Source: Phormidesmis priestleyi ULC007
Lineage (GTDB): Bacteria > Cyanobacteriota > Cyanobacteriia > Leptolyngbyales > Leptolyngbyaceae
Direction: 5' to 3'
NCBI RefSeq assembly: GCF_001895925.1
Contig: NZ_MPPI01000014.1
Coordinates: 62,001-126,000 of the forward strand
DNA length: 64,000 bases
Below the pieces are notes generated by a model that saw only the letters and a list, made by a program, of their open reading frames with translations, did not search any database and was not told the DNA's origin. The position numbers were made by a program, and so were the translations under genes. This document shows, in pieces, positions 53,292-64,000 of the stretch; position 1 is the first letter of the stretch; each line of letters begins with the position of its first letter.

Positions 53292-55565
53292 CTATTCTTC
53301 AACCTGGTTGACGCGGCGCAGATTTAAAACGTCAGTCATTTTTCTGACTTGGGCGAAGGTGCGCTCTAGCTGGGTGTGATCACAAATGTCGATGCCCAAA
53401 TCGATGACGGCAGTTTGATCGGGGAAGGTTTTGACTTGAGCGTTGCGGACGTTAATATTGTGGTCGGTCAAGCGAGACAGAATATCTTTGAGCACCCCGA
53501 CTCGATCGATGACATCAATCTGAATGCAAACGGGATAGGTTTGCGGTCTTCCGCCATTCTGACTGGTAGGGTTCCAACTCACCGGAACTAAGCGATCGCC
53601 GTCAACCTGCTCTAAGTTGCTACAGCCTTGACGGTGAATTGAAATGCCGCGATTGCTGCGGGTAACTACTCCAATAATCGCTTCACCGGGCACAGGGTTG
53701 CAGCAGCCCGCGAGGTGATAGAGCAAGCCCTCAACCCCCGCGATCGGAGATTTTGTAGAAGTCGCAGGCGGTAGAGAACGCAGCGTCGGAGCGGCGGTCA
53801 ACAAGAGTTGGGGATCAGTCAAAATGCTGCCAGCATCAGAGATTTTGGCGAGCGGCTGCTGGGCTTTGACAGCTTCTCGAATGCGGTTAAGCGCCAGGTT
53901 GAGGGTCATCTCTCCATAGCCAACCGCAGCCAGCAGATCTTCAACGCTGTGATAGTTACACCGTTCGGCGGCGACTTGCATCGGTGCAGACTTGAGCAGC
54001 GCTTCAAAGCCTTTCTTGCCCAGTTCTTTTTCTAGCATTTCTCGCCCGCGCAAGATATTTTCGTCTCGGTGCGATCGCTTATACCACTGCCGAATTCGAT
54101 TTCGGGCCCCAGAGGTCACTACAAAATTCAGCCAGTCTAAGCTGGGGTGAGAATTTTTCTGCGTAATAATCTCCACAATGTCGCCGTTGTGTAGCGTCGT
54201 ATCGAGGGTGACAATGCGCCCATTGACTCTGGCACCTGCACAGTGATTGCCTACCTCGGTATGAATGCGGTAGGCAAAATCGACGGGAGTCGATCGAGAA
54301 CTCAGCGAAACCACTTCTCCGCGTGGCGTAAAGACAAAGACATCGCCGTCAAACAGATTGTCTTTGATGCTTTCTAAATATTCTTGAGCATCTTTGAGGT
54401 CATTTTGCCAGTCAAGTAATTGCCGCAACCAGGTGAATTTTTCATCGGTTGTCGTCATCTGCTGAGCGCTAGAACTCCCGGCTTCTTTATACTTCCAATG
54501 AGCGGCGATGCCATATTCAGCGACGTGATGCATTTCTAAAGTGCGAATCTGCACTTCTAAGGGGCGACCCGTCGTGCCAATCACCACGGTGTGCAGTGAC
54601 TGATAGCGATTGGATTTAGGCAGCCCAATATAATCTTTAAAGCGTCCGGGAATAGGACGGAACATATCATGAACCACCGCTAAGGCTCGATAGCATTCGT
54701 CGTTTGTGGTGACGATAATGCGAATCGCGGCAACATCATAGATTTGCTCATAATCTTTCTGCTGACGCTGCATCTTTTGGTAAATGCCATACAGATGTTT
54801 CGGGCGACCGCTCACCTCAACGCAGTGAACTCCTAGCTGAGTCATGCGCTCTTTAAACGTTTGAGCAACCTCGGTAAGCTGGCTTTCACGATCGCCCCGC
54901 TTTTCTGCCACCCGTTGCTTAATATCTTGATAAGCGTCGGTTTCGAGATACTTAAATGCGAGGTCTTCTAGCTCCCATTTGAGGTTGCCAATGCCGAGAC
55001 GATTGGCGAGTGGAGCAAAGATTTCTCGTGTTTCTAGGGCAATGCGGCACTGTTTTTCGTGGGACAGATGCTCTAGCGTTCGCATGTTGTGGAGGCGATC
55101 GGCCAGCTTGACCACGATCACTCGAATATCTTGCGCCATTGCCAAAAACATACGGCGAAAGTTTTCTGCCTGACGCTCAGTTTTGCTAGAAAAGTTAAAC
55201 TTAGAAAGTTTTGTAACTCCTTCAACAAGACAGCGCACTTCAGAACCAAATCGCTGCTCAATTTCGTCGGAGGTGACATCCGTGTCTTCAACCACATCAT
55301 GCAAGAAGCCTGCCGCAATCATGATGCTGCTGCCGCCCAGATCGCGCAGCAAACCCGCAACTGCTACCGGATGAGCGATGTAGGGTTCTCCAGATGCCCG
55401 ATATTGCCCTTCGTGAAGCTGATAGGCAAACTCAAATGCTCGACAAATCAGGTCATTGTCTTTAGAAGCCTTGGGGTTGTCTGGCTGCGATCGCTCATTC
55501 AAGCAATCGCGCAACCAATCAGGAAGCGTAATATCTTTGGTGGGAATGGAAAGTGCTACGTTCAT
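53292..55565 (-). CDS. Bifunctional (p)ppGpp synthetase/hydrolase (Rel/SpoT)
   Basis: A 757-residue long RSH protein of the stringent response. The HD hydrolase domain has AYQLHEGQYRASGEPYIAHP and GFLHDVVEDTDV (His89-Asp90) with KLADRLHNMRTLEHL, all intact, so hydrolase activity is likely. The synthetase has RIIVTTNDECYRALAVVHDM and RFKDYIGLPKSNRYQSLHTV. TGS (DVFVFTPRGEVVSLSSRSTP), helical and C-terminal ACT domains (VCIQIDVIDRVGVLKDILSR) complete it. Cyanobacteria usually have one such enzyme. Confidence 0.95.
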   Translation of the reverse strand: MNVALSIPTKDITLPDWLRDCLNERSQPDNPKASKDNDLICRAFEFAYQLHEGQYRASGEPYIAHPVAVAGLLRDLGGSSIMIAAGFLHDVVEDTDVTSDEIEQRFGSEVRCLVEGVTKLSKFNFSSKTERQAENFRRMFLAMAQDIRVIVVKLADRLHNMRTLEHLSHEKQCRIALETREIFAPLANRLGIGNLKWELEDLAFKYLETDAYQDIKQRVAEKRGDRESQLTEVAQTFKERMTQLGVHCVEVSGRPKHLYGIYQKMQRQQKDYEQIYDVAAIRIIVTTNDECYRALAVVHDMFRPIPGRFKDYIGLPKSNRYQSLHTVVIGTTGRPLEVQIRTLEMHHVAEYGIAAHWKYKEAGSSSAQQMTTTDEKFTWLRQLLDWQNDLKDAQEYLESIKDNLFDGDVFVFTPRGEVVSLSSRSTPVDFAYRIHTEVGNHCAGARVNGRIVTLDTTLHNGDIVEIITQKNSHPSLDWLNFVVTSGARNRIRQWYKRSHRDENILRGREMLEKELGKKGFEALLKSAPMQVAAERCNYHSVEDLLAAVGYGEMTLNLALNRIREAVKAQQPLAKISDAGSILTDPQLLLTAAPTLRSLPPATSTKSPIAGVEGLLYHLAGCCNPVPGEAIIGVVTRSNRGISIHRQGCSNLEQVDGDRLVPVSWNPTSQNGGRPQTYPVCIQIDVIDRVGVLKDILSRLTDHNINVRNAQVKTFPDQTAVIDLGIDICDHTQLERTFAQVRKMTDVLNLRRVNQVEE

Positions 55566-56016
55566 GCTGTCTTGCTCGGAGGGTTGGCGGGGCAGGAACT
55601 GAGAGATAACGACTGATTCTACTGCAATCGTGTATTTACGTATACCAATCGATCAATGAATAAGCGATATGTCTAGCAGAGAGATTAGCTGCTAGACAAA
55701 AAAATCACTAATAATTCGCGATACTGCAAGCCTGTAGGACTAATCACATCCTAGAAAAACCTGACCGATATCTCGCTAAAGACTGAGATTTTTAACCGAT
55801 TTTGAGGAGCTTAAGACTATATTTATGCTTATTCTACCAATGGGATCACGTTTCTTAACACGAATTTTGGCGGGTAAGCCGAATTTTGACAGGCGAGAAT
55901 CACGAACTATTTTTTGAGTAACTTGAAGAGTAGTTCGGAATTTCTGCCTCTTTGAGGAGGGCACGATCGGGCTTCTCGTCTAGGTTAAGTTCATCACAAT
56001 TTTGGGAGCCGATGAG
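55566..56016. other. Intergenic region upstream of rel and the AADC-like gene
   Basis: A divergent 450-base region that should carry the rel promoter (minus) and the promoter of the gene at 56017. No small gene or repeat identified; GGGAG precedes the ATG at 56017 by 8 bases. Confidence 0.4.
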
Positions 56017-56643
56017 ATGAGCTATCCTCAAGCACCCTGGACACTGAAGGGGTTTGCGTTTCAAACGCTGCATTTAATTGATATCGCCAAAGCATCGCCG
56101 TTTATTCCGCCAGAGTTGGCGATCGTGTCGGCTGCCCCTGACAAAACGCTGGGAGGTGTTTATTTCTCGCAATATGGGACTGGCTCTAGCCTGGAATATA
56201 ACGAGCTAATTGTGGTAGCTGGCGTGGTAAGGCGAGAGCAAACGATCGGCGCTTGGGTGTCTCATATTTATGTTGACAATCCCGATTCGGTGGCTGGCGG
56301 TCGAGAAATTTGGGGAATGCCAAAGGAGTTGGCTACGTTTGACTGGCAAGCAGGAGCGCAGCGAGTTGTCGTTCAACAAGACGATCGGGTGCTGTGTTCT
56401 TTGAGTTCTAGCTGGCGAGTGAGTCTTGTAAGGCAAGCGATCGCGTTTCCAGTCTATAGTTTGTTGAACTCTAATTTTCTGCGGTTTAATGCGACGGCTT
56501 CAGCTAATTTTGGTTGGATTGGAGCCAAATTAGAGGTGCCAGAGGTTTCTCCGTTTGCGAGTGTGATTGACACGATGCCGATTTCCGCGTTCAGTGCAGA
56601 CTCATTAGAATTAAGAGTTGATGGGCCGAGGGTTGTTGCTTAG
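56017..56643 (+). CDS. Acetoacetate decarboxylase family protein
   Basis: A 208-residue protein with the ADC fold: YPQAPWTLKGFAFQTLHLID, a beta-rich centre with YNELIVVAGVV, and GREIWGMPKELATFDW, where the lysine in MPKE aligns with the Schiff-base lysine region of ADC. Related proteins act on other keto acids or are non-catalytic, so decarboxylation is not proven. The frame reaches a TTG at 56002, but ATG 56017 has GGGAG properly spaced. Confidence 0.8.
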   Translation: MSYPQAPWTLKGFAFQTLHLIDIAKASPFIPPELAIVSAAPDKTLGGVYFSQYGTGSSLEYNELIVVAGVVRREQTIGAWVSHIYVDNPDSVAGGREIWGMPKELATFDWQAGAQRVVVQQDDRVLCSLSSSWRVSLVRQAIAFPVYSLLNSNFLRFNATASANFGWIGAKLEVPEVSPFASVIDTMPISAFSADSLELRVDGPRVVA

Positions 56644-56656
56644 ATTGTATTTGAGC

Positions 56657-56722
56657 AAGGATCGTGGATTAAATACGGTTACTTGTAATGGTAACGGGCA
56701 CTGCCATGCCCTTGCAAGACCC
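56657..56722 (+). repeat. Small palindromic repeat, family A (copy 4)
   Basis: AAGGATCGTGGATTAAATAC, GGTTACTTGTAATGGTAACG, then a shortened GGGCACTGCCATGCCC palindrome. It follows the AADC-like gene and lies just beyond the end of the Rpn-like pseudogene. Compared with copies 1-3 the palindrome has lost about 5 bases. Confidence 0.68.
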
Positions 56723-56726
56723 AAGT

Positions 56727-57052
56727 TTAAGCTTTTGGAGACTTACCCACCTGCTGCTGAAGTTGTGGGACTTGCTCGATCGATAAACCCGTAGAAGAGG
56801 CAATAATGTCGATCGCGATGCCTCTGCGTAGAAGATTGATCGCGATTTCTCGTTGTTTTCTTTCTTCCCCCTTGGTTTCTCCCTCTGCCAGGATCGAACG
56901 ATAAACGGTGGATTCCTGCATGATGTCTCTCCGCAATACACGAGAAATGACTTCATCTTCTAAATTGCAGAGGCGGCAATTAGATTCGCTTGCGTCATGG
57001 GATCTGAGATTTGATTGACTGCTTGAGCGACCTACCGCAGCATTGGGCTGCC
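56727..57052 (-). pseudogene. Remnant of an Rpn/PD-(D/E)XK transposase-family gene
   Basis: Only the C-terminal part of this family is recognisable. Reading the minus strand: SPMLR, a stop (TAG at 57034), VAQAVNQISDPMTQANLIAA, then SAI and a frame break near 56960, then LEDEVISRVLRRDIMQESTV, YRSILAEGETKGEERKQ, INLLRRGIAIDIIASSTGLS, IEQVPQLQQQV. A nonsense codon and a small deletion have inactivated it, and the N-terminal nuclease part is missing. It abuts the restriction-modification cassette. Confidence 0.75.
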
Positions 57053-57187
57053 GTGTTTGCAGATGTATGTTAATTACTCAGAGTCTTATCTCAACAAAAT
57101 TCAGAAATTACGAGCATCCTGGAAATAGTCGAAATTGGACTATTCCAAAATAGACTTTACCCTTCTGCAAGAGAACAGGAGGGGGTT

Positions 57188-57442
57188 ATGAAAAAATCTC
57201 TCTTTTCAGAAGATTACAAGTGCTTCCTCAAACTGCTGCGTGAAGTACGAGAGCGTGCTGGACTTACCCAAGAACAAATTGCAGAAAGGCTTGAAACCAC
57301 TCAATCCATCATTAGTAAATGTGAGCGAGGTGAGCGGAGACTTGACGTTGTTGAGTTGAAAGCCTGGTGTCAAGCACTCGATCGCCCCCTTCCTGTTTTT
57401 ATTGCTGAGTTTGAAAAAGCTCTAACTGAGGGGGGTAAGTAA
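57188..57442 (+). CDS. XRE-family helix-turn-helix regulator (C protein-like)
   Basis: An 84-residue DNA-binding protein: LREVRERAGLTQEQIAERLE, then TTQSIISKCERGERRLDVVE is the HTH_3 fold with recognition helix around residues 36-47. Small XRE proteins beside restriction genes often act as controller proteins that delay nuclease expression. It ends 2 bases before the GTG of the nuclease gene, so the two are surely co-transcribed. GGAGGGGG lies right before the ATG. Confidence 0.85.
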   Translation: MKKSLFSEDYKCFLKLLREVRERAGLTQEQIAERLETTQSIISKCERGERRLDVVELKAWCQALDRPLPVFIAEFEKALTEGGK

Positions 57443-57444
57443 CT

Positions 57445-58527
57445 GTGCAGAAAATCATAGATCAACTCATTGCATCTGACCGTTTTAGTATGAAATTGCT
57501 TTATGATAGCGCTTGGTCAATTTTTTCTACTAACAAAGCAACCTCTGACAGCATCAATATTCTGAGGAATGACTTCAGTAACAACAAATACAAACAGATT
57601 GCCTTCGGAATCCTTCGACATGCTTTTTTGATTGAGTTAGTGAAGATTCCAGGTATTGAAACAACTAAGTTTCGCACTCGTTGGTACTCACAACTTAGCG
57701 GAGATCCAAGAGAATGCTCTTTTAATGAGTGTGTGGAAATTGCTCAGGATCTTGTTTTCACTCTTACAGGCGTTTGGCTCAAGAATTCTGAAAATCTTGA
57801 GGTGCTGACTCTATTTCTTGAGCATGGTATCCTTCCCTACGAATTACCGATTGACTATGTAGAACGACCTGCCATTAATGATATGGCTACTAAAATCCAC
57901 AGAAAAGGAAATGTTGTATGGATTGTTGATGAAAATGTCATTAGAACTCTTAAACTGCGACAGTATCTCACTAATCCTCAAACCAGTCCTGATGCTGTGT
58001 TCTTCAAGAAAGTACTTGATGACAAAATCAAGATAAAAACGTACCTGACGGATCGAGTACTAACTGGACTCTATAAGACAAATCGAGAAAAACGATGGGA
58101 AGTCCATCCTCGCTCAGTTCATTTTTCCCTTAGACGGGTATGTATAGCAATTGAATATGAGCTTATTACACAGCTTTGTGCGTTTGAGGGCTTTCCTGAA
58201 AATTTTCGAGAAATGCTCCAAGAGCAAGAAATTCTTCCACAAGCGATGGAAATATCTCGCTGTCCCATAACGCTGGAACCACTTGTATTTCAAAAGTTTA
58301 GAGAAGAATTAATGAACCCTACGCATGGGAAATCAAATTTCCAAGTCGGGCATCTCAACCCTCTCAAGCTTGACGACCCAAATAGTCTTATTGCTGGACA
58401 TACACCAGGAAATATAAGTTGGATCTCTGCCAATGGAAATAGAATTCAGGGCAGCATGAGTCTTGAAGAAGTACGAAACTTACTTAAACAAATCACTCAT
58501 AACTATGAAAATGAGGGCTTGGCATAG
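57445..58527 (+). CDS. Putative HNH-family restriction endonuclease
   Basis: A 360-residue protein. The first 270 residues match nothing I know. The C-terminus has a metal-finger (HNH/beta-beta-alpha) pattern: Cys273 in RCPITLEPLV, the catalytic-histidine candidate His303 in FQVGHLNPL, His319 in AGHTPGNISWIS (Asn323) and Asn332/Arg333 in NGNRIQG. Its position after a C-like protein and opposite a methyltransferase argues that it is the nuclease of the cassette. GTG start with GGGGG 9 bases upstream. Base composition is AT-rich relative to neighbours. Cleavage activity is inferred, not shown. Confidence 0.7.
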   Translation: MQKIIDQLIASDRFSMKLLYDSAWSIFSTNKATSDSINILRNDFSNNKYKQIAFGILRHAFLIELVKIPGIETTKFRTRWYSQLSGDPRECSFNECVEIAQDLVFTLTGVWLKNSENLEVLTLFLEHGILPYELPIDYVERPAINDMATKIHRKGNVVWIVDENVIRTLKLRQYLTNPQTSPDAVFFKKVLDDKIKIKTYLTDRVLTGLYKTNREKRWEVHPRSVHFSLRRVCIAIEYELITQLCAFEGFPENFREMLQEQEILPQAMEISRCPITLEPLVFQKFREELMNPTHGKSNFQVGHLNPLKLDDPNSLIAGHTPGNISWISANGNRIQGSMSLEEVRNLLKQITHNYENEGLA

Positions 58528-58530
58528 CGA

Positions 58531-60522
58531 CTATGAACCAGCCACCGCTAATCTAGCTTTCTTCGCCAGTTCCCTGGCTTCAACACGGTCATTGATAGAG
58601 GTTCTGACCATTTCTGTAATCTCGTGACGTAGTTGCTCAGATTTTGGGATAGGTAGAACGAGTTCATTGATTCTTTCACCAAGACTATCAATAATATCTT
58701 GTGTGAACTGTTTAGATTTTACCTGACGCTGAACAACTGGTGAACTTAAAACAGCGAGTAGGAGAAACGGATTCAGGTCTAAGCTGTTAGGCATTACACG
58801 AACCTTATACAAATGGCTCTGATAAATGATCTTGCAATCATATTCCGTTACTATCGCGCAAGTTCCAATTAAATATGTACCATCTTTAACCATCAAGATG
58901 TCATTAGCCTGAATATCTTGTTTCTTCCTCAGAGATTCAAAAATTTGATGAGCAACACCATGTTTGGGATCAGCTTTTAGTTCCCAGTTGCTAATGTCCG
59001 ACGTTCTTATAAATGGAATATCTCCAGTACCATACGCAAGCTTACCTAATTCATCTCCTGTAGAAACTTTTAGCACTCCGTCTTTAACAAGTTGACCGAA
59101 GTCAAGCAAGGCATGAGTATTTTCTAAGGAAATTAAGTTTTCGTTAACTTGAGGATCATAATATCTGGGACACAGTACTTTCGATTGCACTGAATCAATA
59201 TCAACTAAAAAGCCAAGGCTAGATTGATCAAAAGCTTCATTGTTTTTTGCAAGTTTCAAATGCTTTCCTATCTTTGGTAAATCATTATTGTCAATGATTC
59301 GAGCACGAGAGTCTTGACCACACCATTTAGCCTCAGCCATGAATATTGTAGATTTCTCTTTTGAACTTTCTCCTTTCTTTTCAGCCACTAGAAGGCAAGT
59401 TTTTGTGTGTGTACCGCCTTTTCCAGAGGTTTTAAACAATGCTTCAGGCATACCAATCACAGCTTGGATATTGCTTTTTTCTAAAAGATATTCAACAACA
59501 TATCTATAGGATTTATTCGATAAAATGCTTTCTGGAAGAACAATTCCCATTCTTCCGCCAACCTTTAACAAAGAGAGACATCGTTCAACAAAGAGAATCT
59601 GTGGAGATACTTGGTTTCTTACTTCTGATGTTGGACTCCACTTGTCAAGTGCGGGATAAAATTTCCATTTACGAGCTAACTGAAACTTATCTAATACTTC
59701 AGGTCTAGCTGCAACAATATTAACGCCAAAAGGTGGATTGGCTAGAAGTACATCAAAACCCTCGGCATCAGCTTTTTCTCGAACGGATAAAAGACCATCC
59801 TGTAACGCCAGGCTATCACCGCATAGAATACTCGGATGTCCACCTGTTAGAAGTGAAACATGGAGTTTTGCAAGATTAACCAGATAATCATCTTTGTCGA
59901 TGCCAAAGAAGGTATCAGTAGCGAACTTGGAAATTTCTTGTGCAGAAAATCCTTCTTCAATCCAATAACGGGAAACTGAAGTTAAAAATCCCCCAGCACC
60001 ACAAGCAGGATCAATAATTGACTCGCCAGGTCTTGGATCAACTGCCTTAACCAGCAAATCAGTAACAGAACGAGGCGTAAAAAATTGACCGGAACGACTT
60101 CGGGATTCACTACCAACGAAAACTTCAAAGGCATCACCAATCGGATCGCTCGTCGCATCAATTAGCGAAAAAGAACAATCAGTCATAACCTTATAAATCG
60201 TTTCAGGATCTAGAAGAATTTCAGATTGTGAATTATAAATATCTGGAAAACCTTCTCGGACTTTTGCAAATACGCTCCGAATTGTCTTTGAGAGATCTAT
60301 TGAAGTCGCCTCTATTTCGAGGGGTGGAACAAGCTTTAGCTCAACATAGAGCTTGCAAAATAGACATTTAAGAAGCTCATCTAATAATGTTTCATCACGA
60401 GTCGCACCAACAAACTGTCCAGCCAAATAATTGCGGAGGTTTCTGAAAATCTCCTTGGGTGTGCCTAATCCTTGAATCAGTGCTAGTTGCCTAACATCAG
60501 ACTTTTCTGAACGCTTTGGCAT
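58531..60522 (-). CDS. N6-adenine DNA methyltransferase fused to an HsdS-like recognition half
   Basis: A 663-residue fusion. The N-terminal HsdM_N-like helices are about 20-120; the catalytic domain has SGQFFTPRSVTDLLVKA (144-160), the AdoMet motif DPACGAGGFL (171-180) and the catalytic NPPF (262-265). From about 440 comes a single target-recognition-like region (GELGKLAYGTGDIPFIRTSD-type start, here GDIPFIRTSDISNW, then KKQDIQANDILMVKDGTYLI and PIPKSEQLRHEI), as half an HsdS subunit. It ends 3 bases from the nuclease gene, reading the opposite way. It would mark adenines in the target, protecting host DNA. Confidence 0.87.
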   Translation of the reverse strand: MPKRSEKSDVRQLALIQGLGTPKEIFRNLRNYLAGQFVGATRDETLLDELLKCLFCKLYVELKLVPPLEIEATSIDLSKTIRSVFAKVREGFPDIYNSQSEILLDPETIYKVMTDCSFSLIDATSDPIGDAFEVFVGSESRSRSGQFFTPRSVTDLLVKAVDPRPGESIIDPACGAGGFLTSVSRYWIEEGFSAQEISKFATDTFFGIDKDDYLVNLAKLHVSLLTGGHPSILCGDSLALQDGLLSVREKADAEGFDVLLANPPFGVNIVAARPEVLDKFQLARKWKFYPALDKWSPTSEVRNQVSPQILFVERCLSLLKVGGRMGIVLPESILSNKSYRYVVEYLLEKSNIQAVIGMPEALFKTSGKGGTHTKTCLLVAEKKGESSKEKSTIFMAEAKWCGQDSRARIIDNNDLPKIGKHLKLAKNNEAFDQSSLGFLVDIDSVQSKVLCPRYYDPQVNENLISLENTHALLDFGQLVKDGVLKVSTGDELGKLAYGTGDIPFIRTSDISNWELKADPKHGVAHQIFESLRKKQDIQANDILMVKDGTYLIGTCAIVTEYDCKIIYQSHLYKVRVMPNSLDLNPFLLLAVLSSPVVQRQVKSKQFTQDIIDSLGERINELVLPIPKSEQLRHEITEMVRTSINDRVEARELAKKARLAVAGS

Positions 60523-60594
60523 AGTATCTCTACATCATCTGTTTTTGATTGAAAGCAAAACATATCGTGTATGCGACAAAAGAGCAAGCGTAAT

Positions 60595-60760
60595 TCATGT
60601 AGTTTCGTTCAATTGAGCGATCAAATCGGGAGGTAGTGAAAGCCAGCCATTGAAGCCTGTATCCACGATCGCGTCTTGTGTGTAAACCTTTCCATCGGAG
60701 CCACAAACTGAAAATGGAATAATCGGCTCAAAATCCGCGTTTGACGACCCCGGTGATCAT
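60595..60760 (-). pseudogene. Truncated, frameshifted retropepsin-like aspartyl protease
   Basis: The ATG at 60760 overlaps the stop of the upstream gene by ATGA. It reads MITGVVK, then the frame breaks (an extra base in AAACGCG), after which the other frame gives DFEPIIPFSVCGSDGKVYTQ and DAIVDTGFNGWLSLPPDLIA. VDTG is the catalytic Asp-Thr-Gly motif of clan AA proteases. It stops at QLNETT, about half the usual length. The missing end lies where the restriction-modification cassette begins. Confidence 0.72.
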
Positions 60761-61029
60761 ACGGCTCTCTTCGTCCGTCCGCCAAATCGACGCACATGGC
60801 GGGAACCGATGCGGACAATCCAGATTTGAGCGTCTGAGTGACGGGCTTCGAGGCGATCGCAAGCAGCAATTTCACTTGCGTCAACTTCAAAGTCTCCGGT
60901 CTCCAGATCGATCGCCACAATTTTACCGTGATTGCCTTCTTCAACTTGCGATCGCACTTGAGATTCATAAATCTCATCACCACGTCGAGCAAATTCTTCT
61001 TTGCTGTAGCGGGGTTGTCGGACAATCAT
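60757..61029 (-). CDS. Small antitoxin-like conserved cyanobacterial protein
   Basis: A 90-residue protein: MIVRQPRYSKEEFARRGDEI, then YESQVRSQVEEGNHGKIVAI, DLETGDFEVDAS, and an RHSDAQIWIVRIGSRHVRRF end. It belongs to a common cyanobacterial family usually found as the first gene of a pair with a retropepsin-like protease, as here (ATGA overlap). Role unknown; an antitoxin function is only an inference from the pairing. GTG at 61038 is three codons upstream; ATG 61029 is the better start. Confidence 0.75.
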   Translation of the reverse strand: MIVRQPRYSKEEFARRGDEIYESQVRSQVEEGNHGKIVAIDLETGDFEVDASEIAACDRLEARHSDAQIWIVRIGSRHVRRFGGRTKRAV

Positions 61030-61057
61030 AGTGTTCACCTATTGCTGTTCTCCCATT

Positions 61058-62551
61058 TTAATGAATGTCTTGACTCTCAAAAAATCCCGTCAGCCATTCT
61101 TTGATGTGATAGGTTGCGCGGCAATCGTCTTCGTTATAAATCACGATCGAGTCCAAAAACGCCCGATCGCCCGTCGCCAGCCATTGAGCATACCAATAAA
61201 TCGATTGGGCACCGTTGGCGCTAGAATCTCGCCAATCAAACCCTAACCATCGCGCAATGTGCTTTAACGCATAGCTCTCGACGGGCAGCGTTACCGATTT
61301 TGTGACTCGCTCATGCAAATCGACAAAGCGCGCTAACAAAGGCGTAATTTGTTCTCTGGGAGTGCCATACAATTCGGCAAGCTGTCCAACGGTTTGCACT
61401 TCAAAGAGGCAAAAATGAAAAATGGGCGCATCTGGATACGCCCACACAAGGTCAAGAAATTCTTGCCAGATTTTTGATTCGTCTTCAGGTTTTTCTGCTA
61501 GCAGTGAATGAAAAACTTCGGTTTGTTTCTGGCGATCGACGACCAGCACGCCATGCAGATAAATCAGATTTAGCGACGGCTCGGCTTCGATGTCAAAATA
61601 AAGCTCGATCGGTGCAGTCGGAATGGAGGAATCGTAGCTGCGATGGATCGGTTTGTGTCCGTTTTGCGGTTCTGTATCGGGTAGAGCGGCGTAACTTTCT
61701 CCTAACAGGGCGCGATTTTGAACTGTGGATTGAGCCTGACGGACTAACTTTCGAGCCGCCTCACCGCCAAATCCTGGTAGGAGTTCTAGCTTGTTTGGGT
61801 GAAGATCTGCCAGCGATTCTAGCGTCGTCAGATTGAGTGCTTGGAGTTGAAGATAGCGACTGGGCGTAACACCCGGCAGCAGGGAAAGATGTTGGTCAGC
61901 TTTGGCGATCGCATAACAGTGCCCATACCAATGACAGAGGCTACAGCGACTGCGCGAGATAAACACCTCTGGCTCTTGGTCAGCCTTTAAAGTGGCGAGA
62001 CACTCGTCTAAAATCATCTCCATGCGAGGAATCGCCTCCCACAAATCGACCTCATAAAAGCCTTTGCCGCGCAGCAGTAGCCAAGCCGACTCGCACCAAG
62101 CCTCCTGCACGGCTGCCAACACTTTCACATGGTAGGCAACGATAATTTGATATTCTTGCTTGGGGCGTTTGCTCAACTTAATCTCAGTTGGCACATAGAT
62201 CCAGTCGCCAAACACCGACTCTCCGGGCTGTTTGGTCAACAGATCAGGAACGCTGATCAGCGTCACACCCGCTTGCTCTGAGCGTAAAACAGGCTGATAG
62301 ATCTGATCGACTCCCTGGCGCATCAGTTCTAGTGTTGCGTCTGCCCCGGCTGCCCAATCTCCCGATCGATAGCTGGGCTTTTGATAGGTTTCGCCCGTCA
62401 ATATCTCCCGATGATTGGCGATGCTGTCTTGAATTAATTTCAGCAAATAGTCATTGGGAGCATCTCGTTGAGTGAGATCTCCATGGCGATCGAGAAACGC
62501 TCGACGGCTACACCGTTGATAATTAAGCAGAAGGTCGGCAGTCAGCAACAT
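61058..62551 (-). CDS. TM0106-family RecB-like nuclease
   Basis: A 497-residue protein with two nuclease-like domains. N-terminally, a RecB-type PD-(D/E)XK core (VPTEIKLSKRPKQEYQIIVA, with the ExK pair) and a cysteine set (CSRRAF near 15; CSLCHWYGHC about 204-213) fit a 4Fe-4S nuclease. A helix-hairpin-helix (LEQ-like LLPGFGGEAARKLV) follows. C-terminally, an RNase H-like fold has YFDIEAEPSLNLIYLHGVLV and IYNEDDCRATYHIKEWL, the acidic residues of DnaQ-type exonucleases. The role is unknown; DNA repair is likely. Confidence 0.85.
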   Translation of the reverse strand: MLLTADLLLNYQRCSRRAFLDRHGDLTQRDAPNDYLLKLIQDSIANHREILTGETYQKPSYRSGDWAAGADATLELMRQGVDQIYQPVLRSEQAGVTLISVPDLLTKQPGESVFGDWIYVPTEIKLSKRPKQEYQIIVAYHVKVLAAVQEAWCESAWLLLRGKGFYEVDLWEAIPRMEMILDECLATLKADQEPEVFISRSRCSLCHWYGHCYAIAKADQHLSLLPGVTPSRYLQLQALNLTTLESLADLHPNKLELLPGFGGEAARKLVRQAQSTVQNRALLGESYAALPDTEPQNGHKPIHRSYDSSIPTAPIELYFDIEAEPSLNLIYLHGVLVVDRQKQTEVFHSLLAEKPEDESKIWQEFLDLVWAYPDAPIFHFCLFEVQTVGQLAELYGTPREQITPLLARFVDLHERVTKSVTLPVESYALKHIARWLGFDWRDSSANGAQSIYWYAQWLATGDRAFLDSIVIYNEDDCRATYHIKEWLTGFFESQDIH

Positions 62552-62678
62552 AGCTATACGCTAACAAGAAATTGGACTAGCTGCATTACCATTATTTGTC
62601 ATCTGTCAAGCGTAATCTTCTTTTAGGCTTCACTCACGACACCTTTCGATTCACCATTAGTTTAAATCGGGACAGCGT

Positions 62679-63857
62679 ATGGTCAGCCTTTCTACGACAA
62701 AATTAGAACAGTATCGGCAACACTTTCCTTATCTAGAAAATGCTGCCTACTTCAACTACGGTGGGCAAGGGCCGATGCCGCGATCGGCGATCGATGCCAT
62801 CAACCAGGCTCAAGAGTCATTGCAAAAAATGGGGCCGTTTTCGAGCGCGGTCAACGTTTGGATGGGAGAAGAAGCGAAACAGACGAGACGGGCGATCGCC
62901 GCAGAATTAAATATCCCTGCTGAAACCATGACTCTGACAGAAGATGTCTCAGTTGGCTGCAATATTGCCCTCTGGGGCATTGATTGGAACGCCGGAGATC
63001 ACTTGTTACTAACTGACTGCGAGCATCCCGGCATTGTGGCGGCGGCTTACGAGATTCAGCGTCGATTTAAGATTGAAGTGTCGATGTGTCCGTTAAAGGC
63101 GACTCTGAATGAAGGCGATCCGGTGGCGGTGATCAATGAGCATTTGCGTCCTCAGACTCGCCTTGTCGTCCTCAGCCACATTCTTTGGAATACGGGACAA
63201 GTTTTGCCATTAGCGGCGATCATGTCTGCCTGTCAAGGCTATCCCAGTCACCATCCCATCAGAATTCTCGTCGATGCCGCTCAATCGGTGGGTGTGTTAC
63301 CCCTGAATCTCACCGACTTGGGAGCCGACTTCTACGCCTTCACGGGTCACAAATGGTGGTGTGGCCCGGCAGGGGTAGGTGGACTTTATGTGCGTCCAGA
63401 AGCACGAGAAAGTTTGTCTCCGACCTTTATTGGCTGGCGCAGCATCACCACCAATTCATCTGGCACACCGACCGGATGGCAACCCGACGGACGACGCTAT
63501 GAGATCGCAACGTCAGCCGTGCCACTTTATGCAGGATTAAGAGACGCGATCGCGCTTCAATCAACCTACGGCACGATCGCAGAGCGCTATCAGCAAGTGT
63601 GCGATCGCAGCGCAGATTTGTGGCAGCGTTTAAGAGCAGTGCCGACTGTGAAATGCCTGCGATCAACTCCTCCAGAAGCGGGTTTAGTCTCATTTCAGCT
63701 AGAAGGCGGCAAGCATAGTTCACTCGTTCAAGCTTTAGAAAGCAAAGGCATCTTTGTGCGTACTATTCTTGATCCCGATTGCGTTCGCGCTTGCGTTCAC
63801 TATCTCACTACCGACTCAGAGATCAATCGATTAGTGGAAGCGATTAAGGAGTTTTGA
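62679..63857 (+). CDS. PLP-dependent class V aminotransferase, cysteine lyase (C-DES)-like
   Basis: A 392-residue pyridoxal-phosphate enzyme. Conserved: YFNYGGQGPMPRSAIDAI at the start, TDCEHPGIVAAAYEI (His117), RILVDAAQSVGVLPLN (Asp199), and FTGHKWWCGPAGVGGLYV with the PLP-binding Lys225. The FNYGGQGPMP start resembles the Synechocystis L-cysteine/cystine C-S lyase C-DES, which supplies sulphur for Fe-S cluster assembly. An epimerase-type role in the same family cannot be excluded. Single gene. Confidence 0.85.
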   Translation: MVSLSTTKLEQYRQHFPYLENAAYFNYGGQGPMPRSAIDAINQAQESLQKMGPFSSAVNVWMGEEAKQTRRAIAAELNIPAETMTLTEDVSVGCNIALWGIDWNAGDHLLLTDCEHPGIVAAAYEIQRRFKIEVSMCPLKATLNEGDPVAVINEHLRPQTRLVVLSHILWNTGQVLPLAAIMSACQGYPSHHPIRILVDAAQSVGVLPLNLTDLGADFYAFTGHKWWCGPAGVGGLYVRPEARESLSPTFIGWRSITTNSSGTPTGWQPDGRRYEIATSAVPLYAGLRDAIALQSTYGTIAERYQQVCDRSADLWQRLRAVPTVKCLRSTPPEAGLVSFQLEGGKHSSLVQALESKGIFVRTILDPDCVRACVHYLTTDSEINRLVEAIKEF

Positions 63858-63912
63858 AGAGAATTGAGGCAAGCCCTTACAATAGAATCTAAGCGATATT
63901 CTGCTTTACACT

Positions 63913-64000
63913 ATGGTCTTCATCAGCCCCAAAACTGACTTTGCGTTCAAAAAGATCTTTGGCTCTAAAAAAAGCAAAGACATTTTGGTCAGTTTTCTCA
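63913..64000 (+). CDS. Rpn family recombination-promoting nuclease / putative transposase (partial, N-terminus only)
   Basis: The first 29 codons read MVFISPKTDFAFKKIFGSKK then SKDILVSFL, the hallmark start of the Rpn/PD-(D/E)XK transposase family (SPKTDFAFKKIFG). The rest is beyond the window. The same family is represented by the pseudogene at 56727-57052, which keeps the C-terminal part. Confidence 0.85.
   Translation, partial: MVFISPKTDFAFKKIFGSKKSKDILVSFL

What the first reader, a model, noticed from the sequence alone, without database searches (positions are those of the whole stretch)
57188..60522. Accessory restriction-modification cassette with an unusual gene layout
Three genes form a unit: an XRE regulator, a 360-residue protein with a C-terminal HNH-type metal finger, and convergently a 663-residue methyltransferase fused to one HsdS-like recognition half. 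A separate HNH nuclease paired with a fused M-S polypeptide and a C-like regulator does not match the classic type I (R, M, S separate) or the common type II (single-domain M) layouts I know. The nuclease N-terminus (about 270 residues) has no recognised relative. A half-HsdS implies either an asymmetric site or a dimer reading a palindromic, bipartite site.
Basis: partly seen in the sequence, partly recalled or inferred. Interest (0 to 1): 0.72.

Follow-up and report, generated by a model that had tools for sequence, protein, structure and literature searches.

The report
DraIII-like restriction-modification system, zinc-free branch
This is a complete bacterial restriction-modification system (a regulator, a DNA-cutting enzyme and a fused DNA-marking enzyme); its layout is a known one, but its cutting enzyme belongs to an unnamed, widespread branch of relatives of the enzyme DraIII that has lost the zinc sites DraIII needs.

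Summary
The three ORFs exist as described. The 360-aa protein is an HNH nuclease: its AlphaFold model (pLDDT 91.9) matches the solved restriction enzyme DraIII (CACNNNGTG) over residues 116-345 (VIA Z 10.4; next row 4.5), and a profile of 28 relatives finds a bona fide DraIII (34.3 bits, E 6.9e-9) while no decoy among 9,393 was listed. Catalytic H303 and N332 are kept in every row that covers them; three of four C-terminal zinc ligands are replaced, and about 115 N-terminal residues are added. The 663-aa partner is a gamma-class N6-adenine methyltransferase fused to one recognition domain (TRD), the published homodimeric M~S kind (M.XmnI, M.DrdI, M.XcmI). So the layout is not unusual; a Phaeobacter plasmid has C + DraIII + fused M~S. 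R adjoins M~S in 28 of 31 genome loci (one only remnants; the other three lie at contig ends). A conserved C-box lies upstream of the regulator. The TRD is more conserved than the catalytic domain (274 of 276 pairs), so specificity seems frozen. The recognition sequence is unknown; a site-avoidance test was inconclusive. Verdict: Type II (probably IIP) R-M system, new variant of a known kind. REBASE could not be consulted.

The parts
57127..57156 (.). Putative C-box operator: AGTC-N7-GACT-N11-GACT, 31 bp upstream of the C start
   Evidence: A 20-base pattern taken from two other loci (L007, L030) matches here twice with at most 3 mismatches, expected 0.00 in 100 shuffles
57188..57442 (+). C (controller) protein, XRE-type HTH, 84 aa
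57445..58527 (+). R: HNH restriction endonuclease, 360 aa, DraIII-like
57445..57789 (+). R residues 1-115: added N-terminal part, outside the DraIII-aligned range
57790..58479 (+). R residues 116-345: range aligned to DraIII chain residues 1-223
58051..58098 (+). R residues 203-218, DR..TG....NR..RW, invariant motif shared in part with DraIII (TTG...NR..RW)
58261..58452 (+). R residues 273-336: HNH (beta-beta-alpha-metal) core with H303 and N332
58531..60522 (-). M~S: gamma-class N6-adenine methyltransferase fused to one S half, 663 aa
59728..59739 (-). NPPF catalytic motif (residues 262-265)
58768..59085 (-). Central recognition domain (TRD), residues 480-585

Best explanation
A mobile Type II (probably IIP) restriction-modification system. 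The fused M~S protein pairs with a second copy in opposite orientation and methylates an adenine in each half of a gapped palindrome. The 360-aa R, probably a homodimer like DraIII, reads the same unmodified site on its own and cuts it with an HNH site that uses H303 as general base and N332 as metal ligand. The C protein binds a C-box upstream of the C-R operon and delays and limits R until host DNA is methylated. Shown here: the genes, the sequence and fold relationship, the kept catalytic residues, the conserved operator-like sequence, the conserved neighbourhood. Inferred: activity, dimer states, the methylated base, the regulation. Unknown: the recognition sequence.
For: R is related to DraIII by fold and by sequence profile. 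Catalytic residues kept. M~S is gamma-class with one TRD. The same layout occurs with a bona fide DraIII. R adjoins M~S in 28 of 31 genome-contig loci, one of them (L028) with M~S remnants only; in the other 3 (L011, L034, L035) R ends within 140 bases of a contig end. The pair is on viral contigs too (L046, L047; short-R forms L064-L066) and on two Acinetobacter plasmids. C-box; C-box use by C proteins: PMC4824078 and PMC3758141 passages. TRD conserved beyond the M domain. Absent from same-genus genome G001, whose matching flanks lie on two contigs.
Against: No activity is shown. Alanine changes at any of DraIII's eight zinc ligands made it inactive and this family lacks most of them, so its fold must be held otherwise. 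C is found next to R in only 10 of 31 genome loci (in L020, L024 and L025 the upstream side is cut by the contig end). The inverted repeat alone is weak: 207 of 1000 shuffles of the upstream stretch score as well. Site avoidance did not separate carriers from a non-carrier. Pfam's DraIII model does not match the window protein.
Confidence: 0.8

Rival explanations
1. The enzyme works through a Type I-like complex: R docks on the M~S dimer and takes its specificity from it, rather than reading DNA alone.
For: One TRD type (64-75% identical to the window in several loci) serves two differently built nucleases, the long R here and the short R of viral contigs L064-L066; the added N-terminal part has no known role.
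Against: DraIII acts without its methyltransferase (PMC3996161 passages); R is free-standing and has its own invariant DR..TG....NR..RW motif; long and short R are related, so both could read the same site.
Confidence: 0.08
2. R is a modification-dependent (Type IV-like) nuclease or a homing-type HNH endonuclease that merely lies beside a methyltransferase.
For: HNH domains are common in both kinds (paper listings); some copies lie in phage gene clusters.
Against: R adjoins M~S in 28 of 31 genome loci in three gene orders; closest fold is an orthodox Type IIP enzyme; C protein and C-box.
Confidence: 0.06
3. The unit is decayed or silent in this genome: only the methyltransferase acts.
For: Some relatives are broken: R is frameshifted in L036 and G187 (L044), truncated in L011 and L016; only M~S remnants in L028.
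Against: In the window all three frames are intact and the catalytic residues are present.
Confidence: 0.06

Closest known systems
DraIII R-M system (R.DraIII, CACNNNGTG; PDB 4L0K; PMC3996161)
   Same: HNH core with general base H183 and metal ligand N202 (here H303, N332); a TG...NR..R motif; fold match over nearly all of DraIII. A Phaeobacter DraIII relative (Pfam E 9.2e-77) has C + R + convergent fused M~S.
   Different: About 15% identity in the structural alignment; zinc ligands C160, H198 and C201 are replaced by T276, S328 and G331 and no N-terminal zinc site is seen; about 115 extra N-terminal residues; TRD 38% identical to the DraIII-linked one. The gene layout of DraIII's own methyltransferase was not seen.
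Homodimeric gamma-class M~S methyltransferases (M.XmnI, M.DrdI, M.XcmI; PMC3874165 Table 3)
   Same: Gamma NPPF domain plus one C-terminal TRD in one chain with a long terminal helix; partner of a separate Type II R.
   Different: Specificity unknown. Their sequences were not compared, since REBASE is not held.
Type IIH ('Type 1 1/2') AhdI system (PMC4081073, PMC3874165)
   Same: Gamma M, half-S, separate Type II R; C-controlled (PMC4824078 passages).
   Different: AhdI has separate M and S proteins; here they are one chain.
C-protein controlled R-M systems (Esp1396I, PvuII, AhdI)
   Same: HTH protein just upstream of R; GAC/GTC half-sites in the operator.
   Different: AGTC-N7-GACT-N11-GACT here, not the classical GACT-tat-AGTC pair.

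Membership tests
DraIII-type HNH restriction enzymes | Pfam PF21586 at its cut-off (27 bits) | tested here: not met
   No PF21586 match of the window protein at E<=1; 2 of 28 family members match at E<=0.1, best 0.0011
DraIII-type HNH restriction enzymes | DraIII fold | tested here: met
   Foldseek ranks 1-4 are the four 4l0k chains (E 1.4e-3 to 5.5e-3, prob 1.00; rank 5 E 0.39; none reached E<=0.001); VIA Z 10.4, rmsd 5.0, 154 aligned
DraIII-type HNH restriction enzymes | Catalytic His and Asn (H183, N202) | tested here: met
   H303 in 28 of 28 rows, N332 in 26 of 26 rows with that column, 2 rows truncated; alignment, DraIII residues
DraIII-type HNH restriction enzymes | Two zinc sites (C4 C22 H28 C32; C157 C160 H198 C201) | tested here: not met
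   C273 and T276 in 28 of 28, S328 in 24 and T in 2 of 26, G331 in 26 of 26; window R has no Cys between residues 97 and 232
DraIII-type HNH restriction enzymes | Cuts CACNNNGTG | not testable with these tools
   Avoidance scan inconclusive
Homodimeric gamma-class M~S methyltransferases | N6_Mtase domain with NPP[FYW] | tested here: met
   PF02384 E 2.2e-37; NPP in 24 of 24 rows, F in 23 and H in 1 (L020)
Homodimeric gamma-class M~S methyltransferases | One TRD fused at the C-terminus | tested here: met
   AF2 model ends in helix 629-661
Homodimeric gamma-class M~S methyltransferases | Acts as a dimer on a gapped palindrome | not testable with these tools
   inferred from the family
C-protein controlled Type II R-M | C gene upstream of R with a C-box | tested here: met
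   binding not tested
C-protein controlled Type II R-M | C activates, then represses, its operon | not testable with these tools
   needs expression data
Type I R-M | HsdR translocase with the M and S genes | tested here: not met
   No such ORF in 54000-64000; flanking genes are ADC, RNase_H_2 and Aminotran_5 by Pfam. The rest of the genome was not searched for HsdR
Type IIG/IIB | Nuclease domain fused to M | tested here: not met
   Nuclease is a separate ORF; the M chain gives methyltransferase and S matches
Type IIH (AhdI) | Separate M and S proteins | tested here: not met
   One ORF

The most novel reading that the evidence does not exclude
A zinc-free HNH branch whose added N-terminal part lets R share the specificity of the M~S dimer: one frozen recognition domain, found from an archaeal bin to phage-like contigs, serves two differently built nucleases, so a Type II layout would work through a Type I-like complex.
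Probability: 0.08. Interest if true: 0.65.

Novelty: new variant of a known kind. Interest (0 to 1): 0.4.

Why it matters
It gives a name-worthy HNH restriction enzyme family, unlabelled in the libraries searched, with a solved relative, so it can be annotated and assayed. DraIII loses activity when any zinc ligand is changed, whereas this branch lives without them: a natural zinc-free DraIII-like scaffold. A recognition domain more conserved than the catalytic domain is the reverse of the shuffling TRDs of Type I systems and predicts that one methylation motif determined in any carrier will hold for most of the family.

Tried and rejected
Unusual layout: rejected on literature and on the Phaeobacter comparison.

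No known fold for the nuclease: rejected. Single-sequence searches had found nothing useful for R in Pfam, PADLOC, NCBIfam or PDB; only the family profile and the fold did. PHROGs was not searched; NCBIfam was searched with the window proteins only. Over the 28 family members PADLOC gave four weak unrelated matches, best E 0.0026.

Predicting the recognition sequence by avoidance of gapped palindromes. In 461 kb of the host, GAC N3 GTC is seen 0 times for 84 expected, CAC N5 GTG 27/77, CAC N3 GTG 29/77, CAC N6 GTG 32/77, GCC N5 GGC 33/115. But G001, same genus without the system, shows the same or more (GAC N3 GTC 5/81, CAC N5 GTG 8/68, CAC N3 GTG 31/68), carrier G005 differs (17/46, 52/57, 26/57) and carrier Chitinibacter G457 shows no clear CAC avoidance (N3 75/93, N5 75/93). 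The motifs low in all three carriers (GGG N1 CCC, GGG N2 CCC and others) are low in G001 too. No inference drawn.

Recognition domain against PDB: one weak match, an unrelated protein, E 0.065. Searching 398 genomes of another phylum-level draw for DraIII (PF21586) found none, and the controls did not ring either, so it shows nothing; 0 of 6 carrier genomes hold one. A DraIII scan of viral contigs found no relative. The C-box pattern gave no exact match in viral contigs. The phage record collection holds no R relative. Searches for print on AleI, MslI, OliI and DraIII relatives found nothing relevant (listings only). The three matches of VIA below DraIII are Cas9 HNH domains, Z 4.5 or less, taken as the common HNH core.

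Full report
What is there. One search gives three intact ORFs at the reported places: an 84-aa XRE protein (57188-57442 +), a 360-aa protein (57445-58527 +) and a 663-aa protein (58531-60522 -). Neighbours are unrelated: ADC-like, RNase_H_2 and class V aminotransferase genes by Pfam.

The nuclease. Alone, the 360-aa protein has no meaningful match in Pfam, PADLOC, NCBIfam or PDB sequences. A scan of 84,980 species genomes with a three-sequence alignment gave 31 loci that encode a relative at 32-57% identity, in records titled as Nostoc, Komarekiella, Azoarcus, Methylobacter, Chitinibacter, Larkinella, Edaphocola, Chloroflexi, Planctomycetota, Oscillospiraceae and one archaeal bin (Candidatus Sifarchaeum); most are bins from metagenomes, whose names may be wrong. 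Of these 31 loci, 26 (27 rows) plus the window make alignment A3; L025, L028, L034, L035 and L036 were left out as near-duplicate, partial or split.

The AlphaFold model from A3 has mean pLDDT 91.9 and pTM 0.91. Foldseek puts the four chains of DraIII (4l0k) at ranks 1-4 (E 1.4e-3 to 5.5e-3, probability 1.00; rank 5 is E 0.39), none below 0.001. VIA-align gives Z 10.4, rmsd 5.0 over 154 residues, model 116-345 against DraIII 1-223; the next rows are Cas9 HNH domains at Z 4.5 or less. By sequence, the profile gives only E 0.81 against 4l0k in the PDB, PF21586 rings in 2 of 28 members at best E 0.0011, but against a Phaeobacter DraIII (itself E 2.5e-66 to 4l0k) the profile scores 34.3 bits, E 6.9e-9, with none of 9,393 six-frame decoys listed at E<=100 under HMMER's default filters. 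The alignment puts the DraIII general base H183 on H303 and the metal ligand N202 on N332 (roles from PMC3996161, abstract and passages). H303 is present in 28 of 28 rows and N332 in 26 of 26 rows that reach it. Of the C-terminal zinc ligands C157, C160, H198 and C201 only the first has a Cys (C273); the others are T276, S328 (T in 2 of 26) and G331. The window protein has no Cys between residues 97 and 232. So this branch seems to be zinc-free there, and carries about 115 further N-terminal residues. Shorter relatives lacking that part exist: about 226 aa next to M~S on viral contigs L065 and L066 (97 and 96-97 bits), 271 aa in L003 (36 bits).

The methyltransferase. N6_Mtase E 2.2e-37, NPP invariant in 24 of 24 relatives, one S repeat at the C-terminus. 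The model (pLDDT 83.6, pTM 0.82) ends in a long helix 629-661 and matches Type I M subunits, BsaXI, PacII and CamA structures (Z 23-28). PMC3874165 (passages) tabulates this build as homodimeric gamma-MTases, M.XmnI, M.DrdI, M.XcmI, which likely act as pairs on gapped palindromes. The reported novelty of the layout therefore falls. A direct parallel is Phaeobacter plasmid pP129_f: a C-like HTH gene, a DraIII gene and a convergent fused M~S that is 34% identical to the window's over 624 columns.

Pairing. In the 31 genome loci R adjoins M~S in 28: 19 convergent, 6 with M~S upstream and divergent, 2 in the same direction, 1 (L028) with remnants; in the other 3 R ends within 140 bases of a contig end (my count). 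A C-like gene lies next to R in 10 of 31, and also in the window, L002, L003, L005/L006 and L039. Among relatives of the host it is rare: 3 of 97 genomes including itself, 2 of 386 in a phylum-wide draw including itself.

The operator. Upstream of C, the window and four loci (L007, L008, L010, L030) share AGTC-N7-GACT-N11-GACT; L007 (Nostoc) and L030 (Xanthobacteraceae bin) are identical over 20 bases, and that 20-mer finds the window's site twice within 3 mismatches, expected 0.00. Seven other upstream stretches looked at do not carry it; several show, by eye only, a classical-looking GTC-TGT-GAC box. The inverted repeat by itself is not significant (207 of 1000 shuffles).

Frozen recognition. 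Over 24 M~S proteins the TRD (residues 480-585) averages 67% pairwise identity and the M domain 49%; the TRD is the more conserved in 274 of 276 pairs. Short-R viral systems keep the TRD (64-65%), the DraIII-linked one has 38%, L003 21%. This fits a Type II system, where R and M must keep one site, and predicts one motif for the family. Ascertainment: the set was gathered by R similarity, so loci with other TRDs and other R proteins are not counted.

Mobility. Same-genus genome G001 lacks R; it matches the window up to 56640 on one contig and from 61058 on another, so the unit sits at a synteny break. Relatives lie on two Acinetobacter plasmids and on phage-like contigs.

Limits. No activity, methylation motif or REBASE comparison is available; the avoidance test was inconclusive. 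Classification as Type IIP rather than another Type II subtype is an inference.

Noticed in passing
L065 1651-6408; L066 2400-6537: On viral contigs a short-R version of this R-M pair lies between a lambda-type portal gene (PF05136 E 2.5e-103) and a terminase gpA gene (PF20454 E 1.3e-45), i.e. inside the phage packaging genes (L065; in L066 the portal side was seen only by eye).
   Followed up: partly
L047 3304-7955; L033 3736-7036: The R-M pair lies just after a phage endolysin-like gene (Glyco_hydro_19 E 1.9e-10; Phage_lysozyme E 5.9e-30).
   Followed up: partly
G000 stretches L068-L087 and window: GAC N3 GTC occurs 0 times in 461 kb where 84 are expected, 5 of 81 in G001: strong avoidance of this and other gapped palindromes in the genus, cause unknown.
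   Followed up: partly
L031 4318-5466 and 5814-6962: Chitinibacter carries two R paralogues beside one M~S gene.
   Followed up: no
L038 5947-6630: A Pseudomonas amygdali plasmid holds a lone S/TRD-like gene, 53% identical to the window's, between IS5- and IS110-family transposase genes.
   Followed up: no
L036 4423-5483; L044 1471-2558: R is split by a frameshift in these two relatives; described only.
   Followed up: no
BFVD Q58MT7: Foldseek's best viral match of the R model is an uncharacterised 293-aa protein of Prochlorococcus phage P-SSM2 (E 3.5e-4).
   Followed up: no
window 56641-61057: Synteny with G001 breaks on both sides of the unit; the flanks lie on two G001 contigs.
   Followed up: partly
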